Positions 1 to 7,444 of a DNA stretch of 7,444 bases are shown here, piece after piece. Position 1 is the first letter of the stretch. The number at the start of each line of letters is the position of its first letter. A model generated the notes under the pieces. It worked only from the letters and a program-made list of their open reading frames with translations. It was not told where the DNA came from and made no database searches. The position numbers and the translations under genes are program-made. The stretch lies in the NCBI GenBank assembly GCA_002686195.1, contig NZAS01000085.1:5515-12958 (forward strand). The letters are read 5' to 3'. Source of the stretch: Candidatus Pacearchaeota archaeon. GTDB taxonomy: Archaea; Nanoarchaeota; Nanoarchaeia; Pacearchaeales; GW2011-AR1.

Positions 1-1320
1 CCGGACATTAAATGTCAATGTATCTGAGATAATTCCGGACTGTAGTTTTGAAAAAGTCCTATCTTTTAAGAAAAAGTTACCCACTTCTCCAAAGAAATTA
101 TTAGCCATCTTACTGTAAGTCTTATCAGCATCTCCGATACTTAAAGATGCGGTAACATCAAGTGCTGCGGAGGGGTGAGGTTCTACATCAAACAAATCTA
201 TATTTTTTAGTGTAGTGCCTGGATTAATAATTGTTTCGAACGGCAACCTCACATTAAAATAGCTGCCTGATCCATCCCATGATGTTGCGCCGGCGCCGGG
301 CGCGGCACTGGGATCAGTTGTAAGCGCCCAATGTGTCTGTTCTGCTCCATAAGCTTGTCGATATATCGAAGACGTGGCTGTAATAAGCGGCCAATCTACA
401 GCTATGCCTGATTTAATAGAATTATACAGAATTCCGGGAGCGAACAAAGGCTGCATAATTGGTCTTAAGCCTCCTCCTTGCTTTGATATCAACTCAGAAG
501 GGGTTGGCTCATAACGAGTATCGATGCGGCTGCCTGCTGATGCGGGAGTCGGGCGAACCGAAGTGTATACTCCGCTCCCAGTTACCAAGAATCCGCTGCC
601 AAAAGATTTAGAAAATTGGGAAACCAAATCCAAAGTTCGTTGTGCTGGATAAAATCCTTTATATGGGTTAAGCCGGATGGCGGCGCTACAAACTAATTTG
701 ATTTCTGTTGCCTTGAGAGAAGTAAGCTCCTTAATATTCAAAAATCCTCTCATAAAATCAGAGTTAGAATAATCTTTATAAAATGTAGACTGAGAACTAT
801 TATATGCTGTACCTACGATCTCAAATGTATCTGTTTTACCTTCATTGAACAACCCATAAGTCAGATAATCATGCACATGTTCACTAACGCGGAACTCCGG
901 AACAAGAGAGAAATCTTTTGCAATCAATTTCAAATCATGGCTATAGTTTGAGTAATCAGTAAACCATGGTTTTGATGGATGAGATTCAAAAACAGAAGCC
1001 GTCCCATTTTGTTTAATAATGCCAGCATTAGCTGGGGCATCCCAATATGCTTCGCCGGCATATATATCGTCCACCAACCAGTGGCGGCTGCCTGTAAAAT
1101 AGTTTACAGCAAAGGCATCGCCTAGGGATTTGGGAGTTACGATTACAGAAGAGTTTTGTAATATACTAATACCACTAGGCGCCACCAATGAATGTGGAAG
1201 CAGGTTCATGTGCTTTCGAGAATATAGCCCACCAACCGTCAGATTGCGAACTTTCTTTGCGCGGCTACTCTTAACAATGACACCTGAGTCATCGATGTTC
1301 GGCCGGGGCGTCGTTGGCGA
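1..1320 (-). other. C-terminal portion within the window (residues 2042-2481), function unknown
   Basis: The last 440 residues visible hold SRKHMNLLPHS (2075-2085), GEAYWDAPANAG (2130-2141), KLIAKDFSLVPEFRVSEH (2172-2189), SQSTFYKDYSNSDFMRGF (2217-2234), YKGFYPAQRTLDLVSQFS (2261-2278), FAPGILYNSIKSGIAVDW (2334-2351) and KMANNFFGEVGNFFLKD (2445-2461). The frame is still open at position 1, so the true C-terminus is not seen. The region ends with no transmembrane helix, sortase motif or autotransporter signature visible, which argues mildly against a cell-wall-anchored adhesin. From memory these motifs also occur in the same order in giant proteins of uncultured phages. Confidence 0.5.
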
Positions 1321-4300
1321 TGGACTATTAATATTCAAATATGGGAGAGTAGGGAAAGCAAAAGAATAATCATTTTGCAACTCACCACAAGAGCCCGTTC
1401 CCTTTAATGTTTTGCCGCTGCTAAACGCCTTATTAGACGCCAAAGAAGGTTGAGTTCGGGTAAGAAAATCAGTTTGTGCATCCAACAGCCAACAACTTTG
1501 ACTAATATTGCTAACCCCAAAAGAGTTGCTTATCGCAGAACCAATACTGTTACGAGACTGGGGCTGTGCAGGGTAATTACCTGATTCATCAAGGGCGCCT
1601 CTAAGATTGCGCCAATATAGATTGTCATATTCGATCCGTTGCAGCGAAGAAGTATAGAACTCGTTATATAAAGAAGGAAATAAGGCTTCTCTGTATAATA
1701 CCCAGTTAACATTATATGAATTCGTTTCTAATGTACTCCAAACATCCTCAAAAGGAGTTACTATATCACCCTGATTAGGGAAACACAAATTATCTAATCG
1801 ATTTTCATCAAAGAAAATTTCCAAATTAGTGTTCCCGGCTTTGATGGTTGCGTTGTTTACGCCATCAGCCAAGAAGTTGACTAAAGTAGGGCGCCCTTTC
1901 ATGGAAAGAGGAGTAAGCCTATATTGAACTAATGTGTTGTCGGCGCCGGAAATTGCTGTTATTACGTTGTCTTTTCTTTCTTTGAGAAGAATTGGATTAT
2001 TAGATTGTCGATTCTTTCGCCAGTTCCAGCCAAGAAAGTTTCCTCTCTTAAACATAAGAAGGTTAAAATAGTTTACAGTTCCACCAAGTGGAGTTGAACT
2101 AATAGGAAAAGCGCTCTCACTTGTATAGGTATTAAAAGGAGAGGTGGCTGGAAATCCTATCACGTTATGAGGAGAACCACTCACCGGATCAATACATCGA
2201 ATATTTAAAGTAGGCACCTGGCGCAAATATGGACTAACATAAGTAATATCCACAGGGGAAGCAGCATCTTCATGTGGCTCAATAAGTCCGTCTCCTATCA
2301 TTCCCACATTGCTAGCAGTAATAAACTCAAAATAAGGAACATACCCTGCAGACGTAGAATAAAACCCTTCGGTTGTTGTTTGAATAGGAGCAAAGCGTGC
2401 ATATCGCAAATCAACCAACGAAGCAGTGCCTAGCGAGCCAGTAAACCACGAGTATTGTTTATCGGAACGCGGGATCGGATGTGTGACATAAAAGTTATCA
2501 TACTGAGCAGCGGAAACGAAAGCGACAGTGGGAGGGTTAAAAATATTTGGGTTTACTGATTGGCTTGTATATTTCAACGTTCTTTTGGTATTTCTATGTA
2601 CCTTATGAAAACCAGGATATTGAGTAAACGAAGCTCCTGGTCCGCCGGCAGTTTGTTCTGGGCCGTCGATTACTGCTGTCGTTCCTGTAATCCACAAAGA
2701 ATCTCTACCAAATCGTGCTGTATGTCGAGAAAGCTGAGAGCGTAACCCATAATCCTTTGCGTGAATATCCGTAACACGGATGCCAGGGATTCCTTCACCA
2801 ACTGGCTCTGAAAGAGTTCCGCTGGGACCCTGGGAAGGCTTAATTACAGTTAGATTTCTATTGTTTATAGACACATAAGGAGAGAATTCAGAACTGCGAA
2901 TATCTTCAAACCCTCGTGACATTACTTCCCAACCACCACAATTTGCAAACCTGCCCACTATAACAGTTTGATGTCCCGATCCAGTAAACTGGGTAGGCGC
3001 ATAAGTTAATCCGAAATCGAAGTGCCCTTCTGCTCCACGATGCCAGTTAATGAACGTATTAATAACATTTGCTTTTTTGGGCAAAAAACTGCCGGTAGTT
3101 CCGCCGGTAAAAGCGGCAGCAATAGTAGCATCCCCACCATCAATATCTGTGACAATGGCGGTATTTCCTCGCACCCCGGATCCCGTCATCTGAGTTAAAG
3201 TGAGCGTATCGCCATTTCTGAGAGAATAAATGTTAATATCCCCATTATTATAAGCCAGGTCTAAAGCTTCGTCCAGTTCAATCGCAATTTGACGTGGAAT
3301 GTCTGCAACACCCGAAGATGCACTTCCGAAACGATACTCCGTAGGAGAATCTCGTACTGCTGTAGTGATCGAAGTGTCACACGTAAAGGTGACGGTAGGG
3401 TGTGTCTCATCAGTTAACTGAATATATTCGCCATTAAGGTTGCCGGGAACAAGAGTCAAAATCTCAATAGTAGCGGTTGCTTGCGACAAAGGCACCGAAA
3501 GATCAATCGTGGGCAACTGATCAAGAAAACGACGAGGGTTAGAATAAGCTCCAACCGTATTAACAACTTCGTATTGTTGGCTATAGTTTCCTAAAATCGT
3601 AGAACCCGTTGTATGGTGAATATTACGAATGTTCACCGGACGCTTAGCAACAAAGTCTCTATAGTATACTGCCTTTTCGGAAGCCGTCATCGGATAAGGG
3701 CGCGCCCCAACGTCATTAGCTTCTGGCCATGGATAATCCGGACCTACCATGCCGATAGCTCCGCTAAGTGTTACATCGTTGCATTGTCCCAAAAGGATCT
3801 TCCAAGCTTCAGGACGCGTGAGATAGGTGTCCAAAGTGGGGCCCTTGTTGATGGCAATATGTCGCGACTGGTGACCACCCACTGCATAATTCGTAAAAGG
3901 CCCCTGCATAGGAATTTCCATCTCGGCGCCGTAAGAATCATGATGGAGGTTGGTAATCTCTAGAGATGAACTAACTCTTTCCACCACTCTCTTGTTATAT
4001 CCAGTAGTTACAGAAGAACTAATCACATTGAAGGGGAAAGCAAAAGTTGATTTAAGGCTATTGTACCCAAAGCCATTTTGCCACTTTCTACCATGATTAA
4101 CCTTAAAGACTCTCTTAATCTTGGTTGTCGGATATTCCTTAAGAGTTTCTCTATAGGTTTCTCTCAGCCCCTCTAAAGAATCTTCGAAAGCCGTCAAAAC
4201 GTTTAACGGAATAAATCTTCCATCGGTAGTATTAACCGGGCCAGCTGGGCGTAGAGCGGTGTAAGTAAACTGAATGTTTTTGTTTTCTTTGAAGTTTGTG

Positions 4301-7300
4301 CCGCCTTTATAAATACTAGCATTGGGCTTCCCCATATCCAACTTGTATGTTTTAGCAAAAGCTCTGCCGGCGAAACCTCTGCCTTTATATTTAACGCCGC
4401 CAACTGTTGACAAAACGGGAAGGCTTTGGCTTAAATTGGGACTAGCAGCTACAGTATCACGAATTTTATCTCTCTGAGTGTCTACCGATGGATTACCCGA
4501 AGTAATCGATGGTGCGCTTCTTTCGGCTCTTAGATGCCAATAGGTGCCACTAATATTAGTACGACGGGGAGAAGAAGGGAGAGGAGAAGATCCCTTCGGA
4601 AAAGGATAAAGTTTTTCACCGATACCGCTAAATGCTGCCGCTGGATCACTTGGTTTAAATTCTAATGTAGGAAATTTTGTTTGATATTTGTTTCTTTCTA
4701 AAACATGACTTTCAACAATATTCAAGACTCCATCTGCAAATTGAGCAGAGCCTGGTATTAATTGACTAATAATAGAAGTAAGAGATTCGTCAAACCATTT
4801 GTAATAATTAAGATATTTTTCAACATCTTTAATATCTGTCACCTTGCGAAAGAAGATCTCTCTCAGCTTCTCTAAAGCTTTATAGCGTTCACGATATCGA
4901 TTAACTGGCTCTCCAATAACATTATTAAAATCAACGACACCAGCAAAGAATTTAAGCATTTCTTCCGAAATTGCGTTATACATGCTCTTTTCAAGCGCAA
5001 AGAAAAAGTTCGGAACAGTTTGATCCACTCCAAATACTTTATCGTCATCATCTAATACCTGCACCATGTCTGAAGAAACAGCAATTTGAGGATCAATAAA
5101 CTTATATGTATTGCTTAATTTGCTTTCAATTGCCTCAACTGATGAAGTCTGGAACCCTTTGCCCAAGCCCGTAAGTTGATATCCGGTAATGTTGCCAAGC
5201 CATCCATAATTGTCTCTCATAAACGCTGAACCAGAACTCATATCTGTTACATTAAAGGAGCCTGCCGCATTTGAACTGGTGACATTTGAGAAATCCCAAC
5301 TAAGTGCCAATGTGTTTAGATTCAAGATCTCCAGATTTCCGTCATTGGGATCCTTGGGTGAAATCTCCATATACGAGCCAGAGATTCCTTGATTCGTTAT
5401 GTCAAACAAATGTTGATCTAAATCACGATCATTAATGTATTTAGTCCAATATTTAAGGCTAGATACCTCAACATCGCTCTTCTTAAGAGTGGCGCCTGTC
5501 AAGTTTGTCTTATGTGCTCCCGCATAAAGGCGCTTGGCAGAGCCCAATATTTGATTTCCGCGAGCTTTAGTGATCGAGCCAGTAAGCGAGAAGCTATCTT
5601 GCACCGTCCCCAAGTAGGTGTTAACACCTCTGAAAAACAAATCATAGGTGTAGTCTGTGGATCCCGAAACTATTTCCGTAACAGGATAGTTACTTGGCTT
5701 TATCCTTACCGAAAGATTCCATCGATCATTGTCATAAGTACCCAAGAAAGTGCTGCTTGTCAATTCAGGAAAATAACTAGGAGAATTAGAAGAGGTTAAT
5801 TTGAAATAAACATTTTTAGACCATGGACTATCGCGTACTGCCAGTACTTGAAAATTAGCATAATCTAAATCTACCCACGTGGTATCCACGCCGCTTAAAG
5901 AGTCAGCGCTGCCTGTGTCAACTGTGTGCATCCCAAACAGTGATACAGGGAGAAACTCTCTGTCAAAGGGTGCATCTTCCTGTTTAAATGCGGGAAAAAA
6001 GATGTCTGACTCGACAGTAAAACCATATTTATTCTCATAACCAGAGCCTTGACTACCAGAAATATAGCCTAAACTATCAGCATTTGATGCGTTTTGCGCT
6101 TGATAAACTGTTCCCGTTAGATTGTTTTTATAGTTAAAATTAGCGCTTTTCTTGTCAACAATCGTTTGTATCAAATTATCTTTTAATTCATATTTTTGAT
6201 CGTTGTAATAAGCGTTAAGGCGTAATATTTCCTCATTAAGATTAAAACAGCTTAATACATTTCTTATTGCCTTTGATGTTCCTTTTGCCTTAAAGATGTT
6301 TGCTAAGTTATTATAAAGATTTAAATAAATCATATTTTTCATATTATTTAAATCAGATTCAAAAAGCATAGTCTGATCTCTATTCTTAAACCTCTCCAAC
6401 ACATCCGAATCTATAAAGATTTCAGGAGTATACAACCCCAAAGACTGGGGCATATGCTGCGCGAAAGGCAACGGAATATAAGACGAACTAGTGTATGTCT
6501 GACTGCGGAATTTTGGTACTTGTGAAATTAATGTATAAAGTGAATCAAAGTACGTTCCCACAATATGACAAATAATCTGCAGATTTCCATGTTCTGTTGC
6601 TTCATGATCTTCTACAATCCAACTTGGAATCATGCTCAAAAGTGAAGCAACATTAGTATTGTCGTGATAAGAGCCACTGTTTAATAGCCCTGTTTTTAAT
6701 GTCGCGATATCTGGATGAGAAGATCTAATAATGGGATCGGGGTACTCTACATTTGCTGCGCTGGCTGAAACTATTGCTGAGCCAGTATTGCGTGAGGTTG
6801 CTGTATATCCTGTCCAAGTCCCGTTAGTGATACGTCCACTGTAATCTAGTACAACTCTATCGATAGAGGAAGTTTGTGTTATACCTTCGTTAAATTTATA
6901 ATAAACACCCAATGTGGTGTTAGATATATCTGTATTAGTGCCGCCATTTACAGGAACAAACCAATTTTTTGCTATCTCATGAGAATTTCTTCTTACTTTC
7001 CAGAATCGAAATTCATCCATAGAGCCACTTAACTTGCCGGCGCCGGCTAAGTTAGAAGGTGCGCCGGCGGTTCCAGAAGGCGCAATTAAAAGTCCTCCAA
7101 TGCGGGCTTTCATTTTTTTAGACTGTAATTCGTTTAAAGTAATGGAAGAATAAGTATTAGTATCATCTAATTGTCCATCAACATATAATTTAGCAATAAA
7201 ATCAGAGCCACTATTATACAATGCCAAACTATAGAATTTCCAATCGGCAAGCGATCCCGTTGTAACTGTATTTCCGATTGATTGTTCAAAAATTCCAGTA

Positions 7301-7444
7301 GTTCCCGACTGTGCAGTTATTAGAAAAGGAGACGTGGCGCTACTAGTAAGAGCAATCGTAAAACGCCCGTAATCCGCACTAGAGGAATTTTCGGCATTCC
7401 ACATATCAAAAACAACTTGTTTTTCAGTTAAAGCACTGTCTAGC
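1..7444 (-). CDS. Giant phage-type tail/baseplate structural protein with LamG domains (partial, both ends outside the window)
   Basis: One minus-strand frame is open over 2481 codons with no TAA, TAG or TGA, so the protein exceeds about 2480 residues. Neither start nor stop is in the window. Domains in local order: LamG-like fold (1-213), KGT baseplate-like helical module (262-425), second concanavalin A-like fold (473-681), charged helical block (782-921), Pro/Ser linker (951-960), then a long beta-type half with motifs such as PMQGPFT (1178-1184), AKRPVNIRNI (1266-1275), MSRGFED (1508-1514), PIPRSDKQYSW (1656-1666) and SLVPEFRVSEH (2179-2189). I see no membrane segment, catalytic signature or long tandem repeat. 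LamG folds commonly bind sugars, and the KGT region recalls phage baseplate proteins, so a virion tail or baseplate role is inferred. From memory the motif order matches giant LamG proteins of metagenomic tailed phages. The reading frame is near certain. The function is moderately supported, and a giant bacterial adhesin is the main alternative. Confidence 0.95.
2446..2982 (-). other. Conserved region with MSRGFED, FHKVHRN and PIPRSDKQYSW motifs (residues 1489-1666), function unknown
   Basis: Motifs in order are HQTVIVGRFANCGGWEVMSRGF (split as HQTVIVGRF 1490-1498 and CGGWEVMSRGF 1502-1512), NNRNLTV (1527-1533), YGLRSQLSRHTARFG (1565-1579), GFHKVHRNTKR (1611-1621) and YDNFYVTHPIPRSDKQYSW (1648-1666). 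These are not low-complexity fibre sequence, and several carry closely spaced Arg, His and aromatic residues. I recognise the motif pattern only by recollection of homologous giant phage proteins and do not know its structural role. Confidence 0.5.
3103..3480 (-). other. Beta-rich inserted domain (residues 1322-1447)
   Basis: The segment starts with alternating hydrophobic strands TATIEILTL (1323-1331) and GEYIQLTDETHPTVTFTCDT (1338-1357). It continues with a helix DIPRQIAIELDEALDLA (1381-1397) and then strands INIYSLRNGDTLTLTQ (1403-1418), a GSGVRGNTAI turn (1421-1430) and FTGG (1445-1448). The plan of strands, one helix, then 'LTLTQ...GNT...FTGG' resembles, from memory, a small domain that recurs in marine phage structural proteins. 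It lies between motif-rich regions and has the look of a separately acquired or swappable module. Confidence 0.45.
3547..3960 (-). other. Conserved central region of the giant protein (residues 1162-1299), function unknown
   Basis: This stretch holds compact, distinctive motifs with rare residues: TNLHHDSYG (1164-1172), PMQGPFTNYAVGGHQSRH (1178-1195), LTRPEAWKI (1207-1215), GMVGPDYPWPEANDVGARPY (about 1231-1250) and YYRDFVAKRPVNIRNI (1260-1275). The density of Trp, His, Tyr and Pro is unlike a low-complexity fibre and suggests a folded core. I recall very similar motif strings from large proteins of uncultured tailed phages but cannot assign a fold or activity. Confidence 0.5.
4681..5100 (-). 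other. Domain: charged helical block (residues 782-921)
   Basis: A stretch of about 140 residues is strongly helical and charged. It runs from SSDMVQVLDDDDKVFG (790-805) through FFALEKSMYNAISEEMLKFF (814-833), NNVIGEPVNRYRERYKALEK (840-859), LREIFFRKV (860-868) and DVEKYLNYYKWFDESL (873-888) to VESHVLERNKYQTKFPTLEF (910-929). Its composition contrasts with the Ser/Thr/Gly-rich beta domains on both sides, which suggests a stalk, an oligomerisation helix bundle or a contact with another virion protein. From memory this is among the best conserved parts of the related metagenomic phage proteins. No enzymatic motif is visible. Confidence 0.6.
5401..6027 (-). other. Domain: concanavalin A-like fold 2 (residues 473-681)
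   Basis: The order of strands is again that of a concanavalin A-like sandwich. An opening strand GFTVESDIFFPAF (474-486) is followed by SLFGMHT (501-507), FQVLAVRDS (532-540) and NVYFKLTSS (544-552). Then come DNDRWNLSVRI (571-581), YTYDLFFRG (599-606), a short LYAGAHKTNLTGATL (639-653) and the closing SSLKYWTKYINDRDLDQH (661-678), which stands where LamG domains have 'DEFRIW...'. It is more divergent than the first fold and would probably need a profile search to be flagged. It is followed by a strand NTLALSWDFSNVTSS (710-724). Confidence 0.62.
6169..6660 (-). other. Domain: phage baseplate/tail-like helical module with KGT motif (residues 262-425)
   Basis: The segment begins with SLLSMIPSWIVEDHE (267-281), then a helix GNLQIICHIVGTYFDSLYTLI (286-306), then SYIPLPFAQHMPQSLGL (321-337), then MIYLNLYNNLANIFKAKGT (371-389) and KAIRNVLSCFNLNEEILRLN (391-410). 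Known phage baseplate proteins of the P2 gpI / Tail_P2_I type contain an 'R/K-G-T..GL...L' motif after a paired helical region. KGT at 387-389 followed by an amphipathic helix fits that arrangement. The module sits between two lectin-like folds. That it contributes the baseplate or tail attachment part of the protein is inference. Confidence 0.6.
6805..7443 (-). other. Domain: LamG / concanavalin A-like lectin fold 1 (residues 1-213, start cut by window edge)
   Basis: The classic LamG signature is present: D67-W68-K-F-Y-S-L-A-L followed by the strand FIAKLYVDGQLD (82-93), then KARIGG (about 112-117), then GSMDEFRFWKVRRNSHEI (140-157), which corresponds to the family's closing 'DEFRIW...EEI' element. 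A further element, LGVYYKFNEGI (178-188) with VVLDYSGR (197-204) and NGTWTG (207-212), resembles the opening strand pair of LamG domains ('YYKFDEG...DSSGNGNNG'). It may start another partial fold or close this one. LamG folds in phage tails and adhesins usually bind carbohydrate or serve as scaffold. No sugar specificity can be read here. Confidence 0.82.
7031..7053. repeat. GC-rich imperfect inverted repeat inside the coding frame
   Basis: A perfect 12-base palindrome, GCCGGCGCCGGC (7036-7047), is flanked by AACTT on the left (7031-7035) and AAGTT on the right (7049-7053), with a single unpaired T at 7048. The two arms total 11 base pairs with no spacer. The site is inside the LamG-like domain and encodes the short Gly/Ala stretch AGAG, so it may simply reflect codon choice. 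No terminator-like T-run follows on the coding strand. Confidence 0.6.

What the first reader, a model, noticed from the sequence alone, without database searches (positions are those of the whole stretch)
1..7444. A single protein of more than 2480 residues fills the whole window
All 2481 codons of one minus-strand frame are sense codons, and both ends are still open. Very few bacterial or phage genes are this long. Giant tail or fibre-like proteins are known in phages, but a mix of lectin folds, a baseplate-like module and a long unassigned second half in a single chain is uncommon. Packing several tail parts into one polypeptide is an inference from the module order.
Basis: partly seen in the sequence, partly recalled or inferred. 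Interest (0 to 1): 0.7.

Follow-up and report, generated by a model that had tools for sequence, protein, structure and literature searches.

The report
Giant lectin-bearing phage baseplate-wedge protein
The window is the middle of one roughly 3,300-residue protein of a contractile-tailed phage, most likely a hugely enlarged part of the tail's baseplate with a sugar-binding-type fold built in; the family is common in viral metagenome contigs but has no function assigned in the records seen.

Summary
In detail: one minus-strand frame is open for 2481 codons (152 stops expected). A 96%-identical relative is complete at 3335 aa, so the window lacks about 213 N-terminal and 646 C-terminal residues. 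In 77 of 78 related loci with three or more upstream ORFs the gene follows gp25-like, gp6-like and one further gene; a 195.7-kb relative carries terminase, portal, capsid and sheath. A core (window aa 230-440) is shared with proteins at the same position in two cultured phages (1265 and 1336 aa) and most resembles, weakly but at one conserved site, P2 gpI / TIGR02242, the gp7/TssG-type wedge subunit. A LamG lectin fold, probably two, is built in. An extension of about 2,190 aa is absent from 4 of 4 short-form records and is a separate gene in L094/L095, L109 and L226, at two sites. Best reading: a giant wedge subunit with built-in lectin and a separable, patchily variable extension. Not rare: 588 IMG/VR stretches (capped list), 1072 protein clusters, yet no tblastn hit in 50,697 phage records. 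New variant of a known kind.

The parts
1..7443 (-). Internal part (about residues 214-2689 of 3335) of one giant baseplate-associated protein; both ends open
6733..7443 (-). First LamG/pentraxin-like (concanavalin A-like) lectin fold, window aa 1-237 (its N-terminal part lies outside the window)
6124..6756 (-). Wedge-type core, window aa 230-440: long helices, then the K-G-T motif (aa 387-389); shared with short gp7-position proteins; most like Tail_P2_I / TIGR02242
5203..6165 (-). Probable second LamG-like beta domain, window aa about 427-747
   Evidence: beta-rich, pLDDT mostly 77-95 with dips; among the 50 rows shown only two, both two-domain laminin/neurexin pairs at rmsd 26-27, span it; weak
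4648..5055 (-). Second conserved helical segment, window aa 797-932, also present in order in the short orthologs
   Evidence: hmmsearch hits in 14 of 14 short forms, E 0.0016 or better; but low model confidence there
3493..4650 (-). Start of the extension; holds a highly conserved stretch (P0001 1351-1500, 59-68% mean identity to P0001); no known fold assigned
3082..3432 (-). Insert module of about 117 aa, window aa 1338-1454; related modules sit at other sites, in arrays of 1-5, in other family members
   Evidence: 33 domains in 16 of 206 sequences, duplicates included; iterative search
2095..2430 (-). Zone (window aa about 1672-1783) within which the chain is cut into two genes in L109; in L226 BLAST brackets it between P0001 1831 and 1999; by eye, from a shared motif, the cut lies near window aa 1707-1743
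2044..2346 (-). Hypervariable patch, window aa 1700-1800 (window versus G001); further patches at aa 2000-2150 (nt 994-1446) and 2300-2400 (nt 244-546)
1..1503 (-). Window part of the C-terminal module that is a separate 947-aa gene in L094/L095 (module starts at window aa about 1981)

Best explanation
The window encodes the middle of an enlarged gp7/TssG/P2-gpI-type baseplate wedge subunit of a contractile-tailed phage. SHOWN: it lies in phage contigs behind gp25- and gp6-like wedge genes; its core is homologous to proteins of 1265 and 1336 aa at the same gene position in two cultured phages, and of 1,148-1,541 aa in uncultured relatives; a LamG lectin fold is built into the chain beside the core; about 2,190 residues follow that the short-form records lack; that extension varies in patches and is a separate gene in some lineages. 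INFERRED: one copy per wedge (six per virion, about 2.2 MDa in all at 370 kDa each) joins two gp6-like chains through the core and so holds the wedge together; the lectin domain(s) and the extension lie at the baseplate rim, where they bind host-surface glycans and/or dock fibres; on binding the baseplate opens and the sheath contracts.
For: Synteny gp25 - gp6 - X507 - giant in 77 of 78 loci with three or more upstream ORFs, next gene downstream the same (D354) in 47 of 47 (the loci were chosen by having the giant). Virion genes in G003. X507 is homologous to the 386-aa and 369-aa genes at the same place in Mel-JY01 and immuto. Core: profile-profile probability 99.1%, E 1.9e-18, with the short family; an HMM from giants alone found in 23 of 24 short-form loci at E 3e-13 to 1e-17 (L025 and L110 being the same phage group; the miss, L127, holds only residues 1-316); second segment in 14 of 14. 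gp7-type identity: Tail_P2_I is the Pfam family hit by most members (13 of 83, best E 0.0031, next family 4), TIGR02242 'phage tail protein domain' the NCBIfam one (28 of 81, best E 7e-4, next 6), phrog_5726 'tail protein' the PHROG one (14 of 83, best E 0.02, next 9); a gpI HMM has its best place at the K-G-T site in 78 of 81 core-bearing sequences; hhalign core-gpI probability 13.4%, P 0.002, against at most 1.1% in 20 shuffles and 0.1% reversed. Lectin. Precedents in papers (passages seen): XM1 gp17 (242 aa) and T4 gp7 (1032 aa) are called orthologs, and gp17 regions bind tail spikes (PMC10457771); [quoted passage not shown] a wedge protein with a CBM fold binds cells (PMC11406892).
Against: The gpI similarity is weak for single sequences: best E 0.0031 and 7e-4 over 83 and 81 members, and the window itself hits neither Tail_P2_I nor TIGR02242 at E <= 1. 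Of 78 gpI-HMM scores at the site 36 exceed the best decoy score and 42 do not; the short forms alone against gpI give only 3.1%. The AlphaFold core model is poor (pLDDT 67.8) and finds no PDB wedge protein; the second helical segment is modelled below pLDDT 50 in large part. Core versus T4 gp7 gives no significant match (E 2). One gene (X507) stands between gp6 and the giant, unlike in P2 or T4.
Confidence: 0.78

Rival explanations
1. It is a baseplate-attached receptor-binding or fibre-like protein that merely sits beside the wedge genes; the gpI-like signal is a small docking domain and the true gp7 is another protein.
For: Lectin domain(s), hypervariable patches and insert modules suit adhesion proteins; Foldseek rows for the N-terminal model include the CBA120 tailspike TSP2 (E 3e-5) and a CBM module of phage J-1 Dit (E 3e-4); X507 stands between gp6 and the giant.
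Against: No tail-fibre or tailspike sequence family matched; the core is the part conserved in short orthologs of distant phages; X507 against gpI gives only 2.1%; the other neighbours tested with the gpI HMM gave E 2 or worse.
Confidence: 0.15
2. A fusion of several wedge proteins (for example gp7 plus gp8/gp10-like) into one chain: the C-terminal module would be a second, formerly separate baseplate protein. (Compatible with the best explanation.)
For: The C-terminal module is its own gene in L094/L095 and in L109 and L226, with Shine-Dalgarno-like sites before the second start, in two places on the gp6 tree, one of them a deep lineage.
Against: No match of the C-terminal module in the short-form records (0 of 4), nor of extension profiles to T4 gp6, gp8, gp9 or gp10; fission of a formerly single gene explains the splits as well, and the tree does not settle the direction.
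Confidence: 0.3
3. A bacterial cell-surface adhesin or secreted giant protein rather than a virion protein.
For: LamG folds are common in surface proteins (general knowledge); one family fragment lies in a MAG 'chromosome' (L133).
Against: Virion genes on the same contigs; the L133 copy is a fragment behind a truncated X507, so a chimera or a piece of virus DNA. Signal peptides and anchor genes were not searched for by a dedicated tool.
Confidence: 0.02

Closest known systems
Flavobacterium phage immuto gene 161 (1265 aa), Microcystis phage Mel-JY01 WWT39511 (1336 aa), uncultured LR756508 ORF (1400 aa)
   Same: Same gene position (gp25 and gp6 upstream; X507 homolog shown for the first two) and homologous core and helical segment, in order
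   Different: No ~2,190-aa extension; its C-terminal module is absent from these whole records; annotated as hypothetical, or not at all
P2 gpI-type wedge subunit (Pfam Tail_P2_I, NCBIfam TIGR02242; TssG in T6SS, gp17 in XM1)
   Same: Gene order after gp25/gp6-type genes; weak but site-specific similarity at the K-G-T motif
   Different: 176-242 aa in P2 and XM1 versus about 3300 aa; similarity weak; lectin insertions and extension have no counterpart
T4 gp7 (1032 aa)
   Same: Follows gp6
   Different: Directly adjacent to gp6; no significant sequence match; a third of the size
Cronobacter phage GAP32_230 'virion structural protein' (3341 aa)
   Same: Giant protein directly after gp25 and gp6 in a jumbo phage
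   Different: No detectable homology (core HMM E 0.43): either convergent enlargement or very remote kinship
Vp4 Gp119 baseplate wedge 3 (831 aa; PMC11406892, passages read)
   Same: Carbohydrate-binding folds in a wedge protein, reported by its authors to bind bacterial cells
   Different: Other fold type (CBM), much smaller, Bacillus phage

Membership tests
gp7/TssG/P2-gpI-type wedge subunit | Encoded with gp25- and gp6-like wedge genes in a contractile-tailed phage | tested here: met
   77 of 78 loci; sheath, portal, terminase in G003; one extra gene (X507) lies between
gp7/TssG/P2-gpI-type wedge subunit | Tail_P2_I or TIGR02242 domain | tested here: inconclusive
   Top family by members in both libraries but weak: 13 of 83, best E 0.0031; 28 of 81, best E 7e-4; the window itself hits neither
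gp7/TssG/P2-gpI-type wedge subunit | Core-bundle / trifurcation fold | tested here: inconclusive
   Model of the core has long N-terminal helices but pLDDT 67.8 and no PDB match of weight
gp7/TssG/P2-gpI-type wedge subunit | Forms the (gp6)2-gp7 heterotrimer | not testable with these tools
   Needs a structure or cross-links
Short gp7-position protein family (immuto 161, Mel-JY01 WWT39511) | Shared core and second helical segment in order, same gene neighbours | tested here: met
LamG/pentraxin-like lectin fold | Profile above curated cut-off or clear fold match | tested here: met
Tail fibre / tailspike | Match to a fibre or tailspike family or structure | tested here: inconclusive
   By sequence none: 0 PHROG families for the window and for the 3936-aa ortholog; Pfam gives LamG folds and two sub-threshold families, DUF7118 and Pentaxin. 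By fold, CBA120 tailspike TSP2 is among the Foldseek rows (E 3e-5), behind pentraxins and other lectin-like folds
Bacterial surface adhesin | Gene lies in a bacterial surface or secretion locus rather than among virion genes | tested here: not met
   Neighbours are wedge genes in 77 of 78 loci and virion genes in G003; signal peptide not tested

The most novel reading that the evidence does not exclude
In this widespread group of viruses a single polypeptide does the work that T4 divides among gp7 and several peripheral wedge and receptor proteins: wedge core, built-in lectins as primary receptor binders, and a swappable hypervariable rim module. The gene has more than once been cut, or fused, near the boundary between the structural and the recognition half.
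Probability: 0.3. Interest if true: 0.72.

Novelty: new variant of a known kind. Interest (0 to 1): 0.5.

Why it matters
Wedge subunits of this type run from 176 aa (P2) through 242 (XM1) to 1032 (T4); this family reaches about 2,900-4,000 aa and is common in viral metagenome contigs, yet it carries no assigned function in the records seen. It gives an anchor (gp25-gp6-X507-giant) for annotating the baseplate of a large uncultured group, and natural split genes that mark where one giant chain may be divided into functional parts. If the lectin domain(s) and hypervariable patches are the receptor-binding face, host range in these phages would be encoded inside a core structural protein, not only in separate fibres.

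Full report
OBSERVATION. The window holds one minus-strand frame without a stop for 2481 codons. By composition 152 stops would be expected. The frame is conserved in relatives: 94% identity to G001 over 2479 residues, 99% to G002 over 1710, 33-53% in four pieces to G003. Codon differences to G002 are 47 synonymous and 13 not. P0001, 96% identical, is complete at 3335 aa (370 kDa) and shows that the window lacks about 213 N-terminal and 646 C-terminal residues. A protein search gave 1072 relatives at E <= 0.001 among the 7955 candidates scored; the 120 listed are 2812-4094 aa.

CONTEXT. In the loci the order is U2216 - gp25 - gp6 - X507 - GIANT - D354 - D1316. gp25, gp6 and X507 lie directly upstream in 77 of 78 loci that have three or more upstream ORFs; the exception (L074) has a 64-aa opposite-strand ORF between. 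D354 follows in 47 of 47; U2216 is fourth upstream in 63 of 75. The loci were selected by the giant, so this shows linkage, not independent sampling. gp25 and gp6 of G003 are named by PHROGs (E 9.5e-18 and 4.2e-15). The 195.7-kb contig G003 also has terminase, portal, major head protein, a 963-aa sheath and DNA polymerase. So this is a contractile-tailed phage and a baseplate locus. No isolate record gave a tblastn match (0 of 50,697 at E 1e-5), but the gp6 neighbour finds 68 records, best Mel-JY01, immuto and a 484-kb uncultured phage.

ANATOMY (full-length numbering; window aa = minus 213 up to about residue 2200). Residues 109-450: LamG/pentraxin-like fold. 443-653: helical core with the K-G-T motif. 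About 640-960: beta-rich, probably a second LamG domain, weak evidence. 1010-1145: helical segment. 1145 to the end: the extension, conserved at 1351-1500 (59-68% mean identity to P0001), variable at about 1900-2350, conserved again further on.

SHORT ORTHOLOGS. At the same place in immuto (1265 aa), Mel-JY01 (1336 aa) and LR756508 (1400 aa), and in loci L110-L130, stand shorter proteins; those followed by another ORF are 1,148-1,541 aa. The core matches them with probability 99.1% and E 1.9e-18, an HMM from giants alone hits 23 of 24 loci (L127 holds residues 1-316 only), and the second segment hits 14 of 14 proteins. X507 is homologous to the 386- and 369-aa neighbours. The extension is missing: a profile of its C-terminal module found nothing in 4 of 4 short-form records and did find G003. 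So the giant is the short protein plus about 2,190 residues, with different material between the two shared segments.

WHAT THE CORE IS. Three libraries, scanned with every member of the core alignment, each put a tail protein first: Tail_P2_I (13 of 83, best E 0.0031), TIGR02242 (28 of 81, best E 7e-4), phrog_5726 (14 of 83, best E 0.02). A gpI model made here has its best place at the K-G-T site in 78 of 81 core-bearing sequences (of 83 examined, two being second halves); 36 of those 78 score above the best reversed or shuffled decoy. Profile comparison gives 13.4% (P 0.002) against at most 1.1% in 20 shuffles, and 0.1-2.1% for the gp6, X507 and D354 families; the short forms alone give 3.1%. 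Structure did not help: the core model has pLDDT 67.8 and no PDB match. Taken with the gene order I hold the gp7/TssG/gpI identity likely (0.78) but do not file it as a proven member.

SPLIT GENES. In L094 and L095 (98% identical DNA, two contigs of different samples) the chain is two genes of 1951 and 947 aa, with AGGGAG before the second ATG. In L109 and L226 it is cut earlier; the second genes begin MAKYYQD in both, after a GGAG-type site (for L109 that start was chosen by comparison, the first start codon of the frame lying upstream). A gp6 tree of 84 rows (96 less 12 near-copies; 6 loci had no gp6 of 300 aa or more; L109 and L226 are partial) rooted on 10 short forms needs two changes, the L109/L226 pair being one of the deep branches (SH-aLRT 97); the direction, fission or fusion, is open. 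Of 79 of the 80 loci fetched by the C-terminal module, 73 were one ORF, 5 ran off the contig start and 1 (L226) was split (many are contigs already in the first set). The cut in L109 and L226 falls near window aa 1707-1743 (by eye; BLAST brackets 1672-1783 for L109), in the bins where the window and G001, nearly identical from aa 50 to 1700, differ most.

VARIATION. Window and G001 differ in patches: aa 1700-1800, 2000-2150 and 2300-2400; P0001 differs from the window only at the later two. A 117-aa module inserted at window aa 1338-1454 has relatives at other sites of other members, in arrays of 1-5 (iterative search). Such patches and modules suit a surface that meets the host; this is inference.

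MECHANISM. Shown: position, homologous core, lectin fold, separable extension. Inferred from published systems: in XM1 each wedge has two gp16 (gp6-like) and one gp17 (gp7-like), whose loops hold spikes (PMC10457771); the gp7-like part of Alg12 meets the fibres (PMC8894135); Tail_P2_I genes resemble TssG and may bind fibres (PMC12923769); a wedge protein with a carbohydrate-binding fold binds cells in Vp4 (PMC11406892); all four seen in passages. The giant would be one chain per wedge, its core in the bundle, its lectin(s) and extension at the rim.

VERDICT. A real, abundant, functionally unassigned family; a new variant of a known kind; interesting chiefly for its size, built-in lectin and natural split points.

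Noticed in passing
window 1-9: The last three codons (read NVR) differ from the 8 homologs printed, which continue without a break; probably an error at a contig end.
   Followed up: partly
L012:3675-10325 (-); L021:9478-15786 (-): A second giant unassigned ORF (2102-2216 aa) lies just upstream of gp25; fourth upstream gene in 63 of 75 loci. Perhaps another baseplate or tail-tip protein.
   Followed up: partly
L005:22227-26177 (+): D1316, two genes downstream of the giant, varies from about 776 to 1680 aa between loci; no PHROG match and only sub-threshold Pfam rows.
   Followed up: no
L133:6941-12062: A WOR-3 MAG 'chromosome' (CP070664.1) holds a 1559-aa family fragment behind a truncated X507, between apparently bacterial genes: integration or assembly chimera.
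   Followed up: partly
L012-L013: G003 carries two nucleotide-sugar epimerases, a phosphoheptose isomerase and two glycosyltransferases not far from the baseplate genes: possible surface-sugar or virion glycosylation cluster.
   Followed up: no
L018:14896-17787 (-): The tail sheath protein of G003 is 963 aa, about twice the length of the phrog_23 sheath profile (496 positions) that it matches.
   Followed up: no
L015:1-20000: One 20-kb stretch of G003 has GC 0.458 against 0.34-0.41 in the other pieces and carries three tRNA genes; two more lie at the start of the next piece.
   Followed up: no
L028:12033-22058 (-): Cronobacter phage GAP32 has a 3341-aa 'virion structural protein' without detectable similarity at the same place after gp25-gp6: enlargement of this slot may have happened more than once.
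   Followed up: partly
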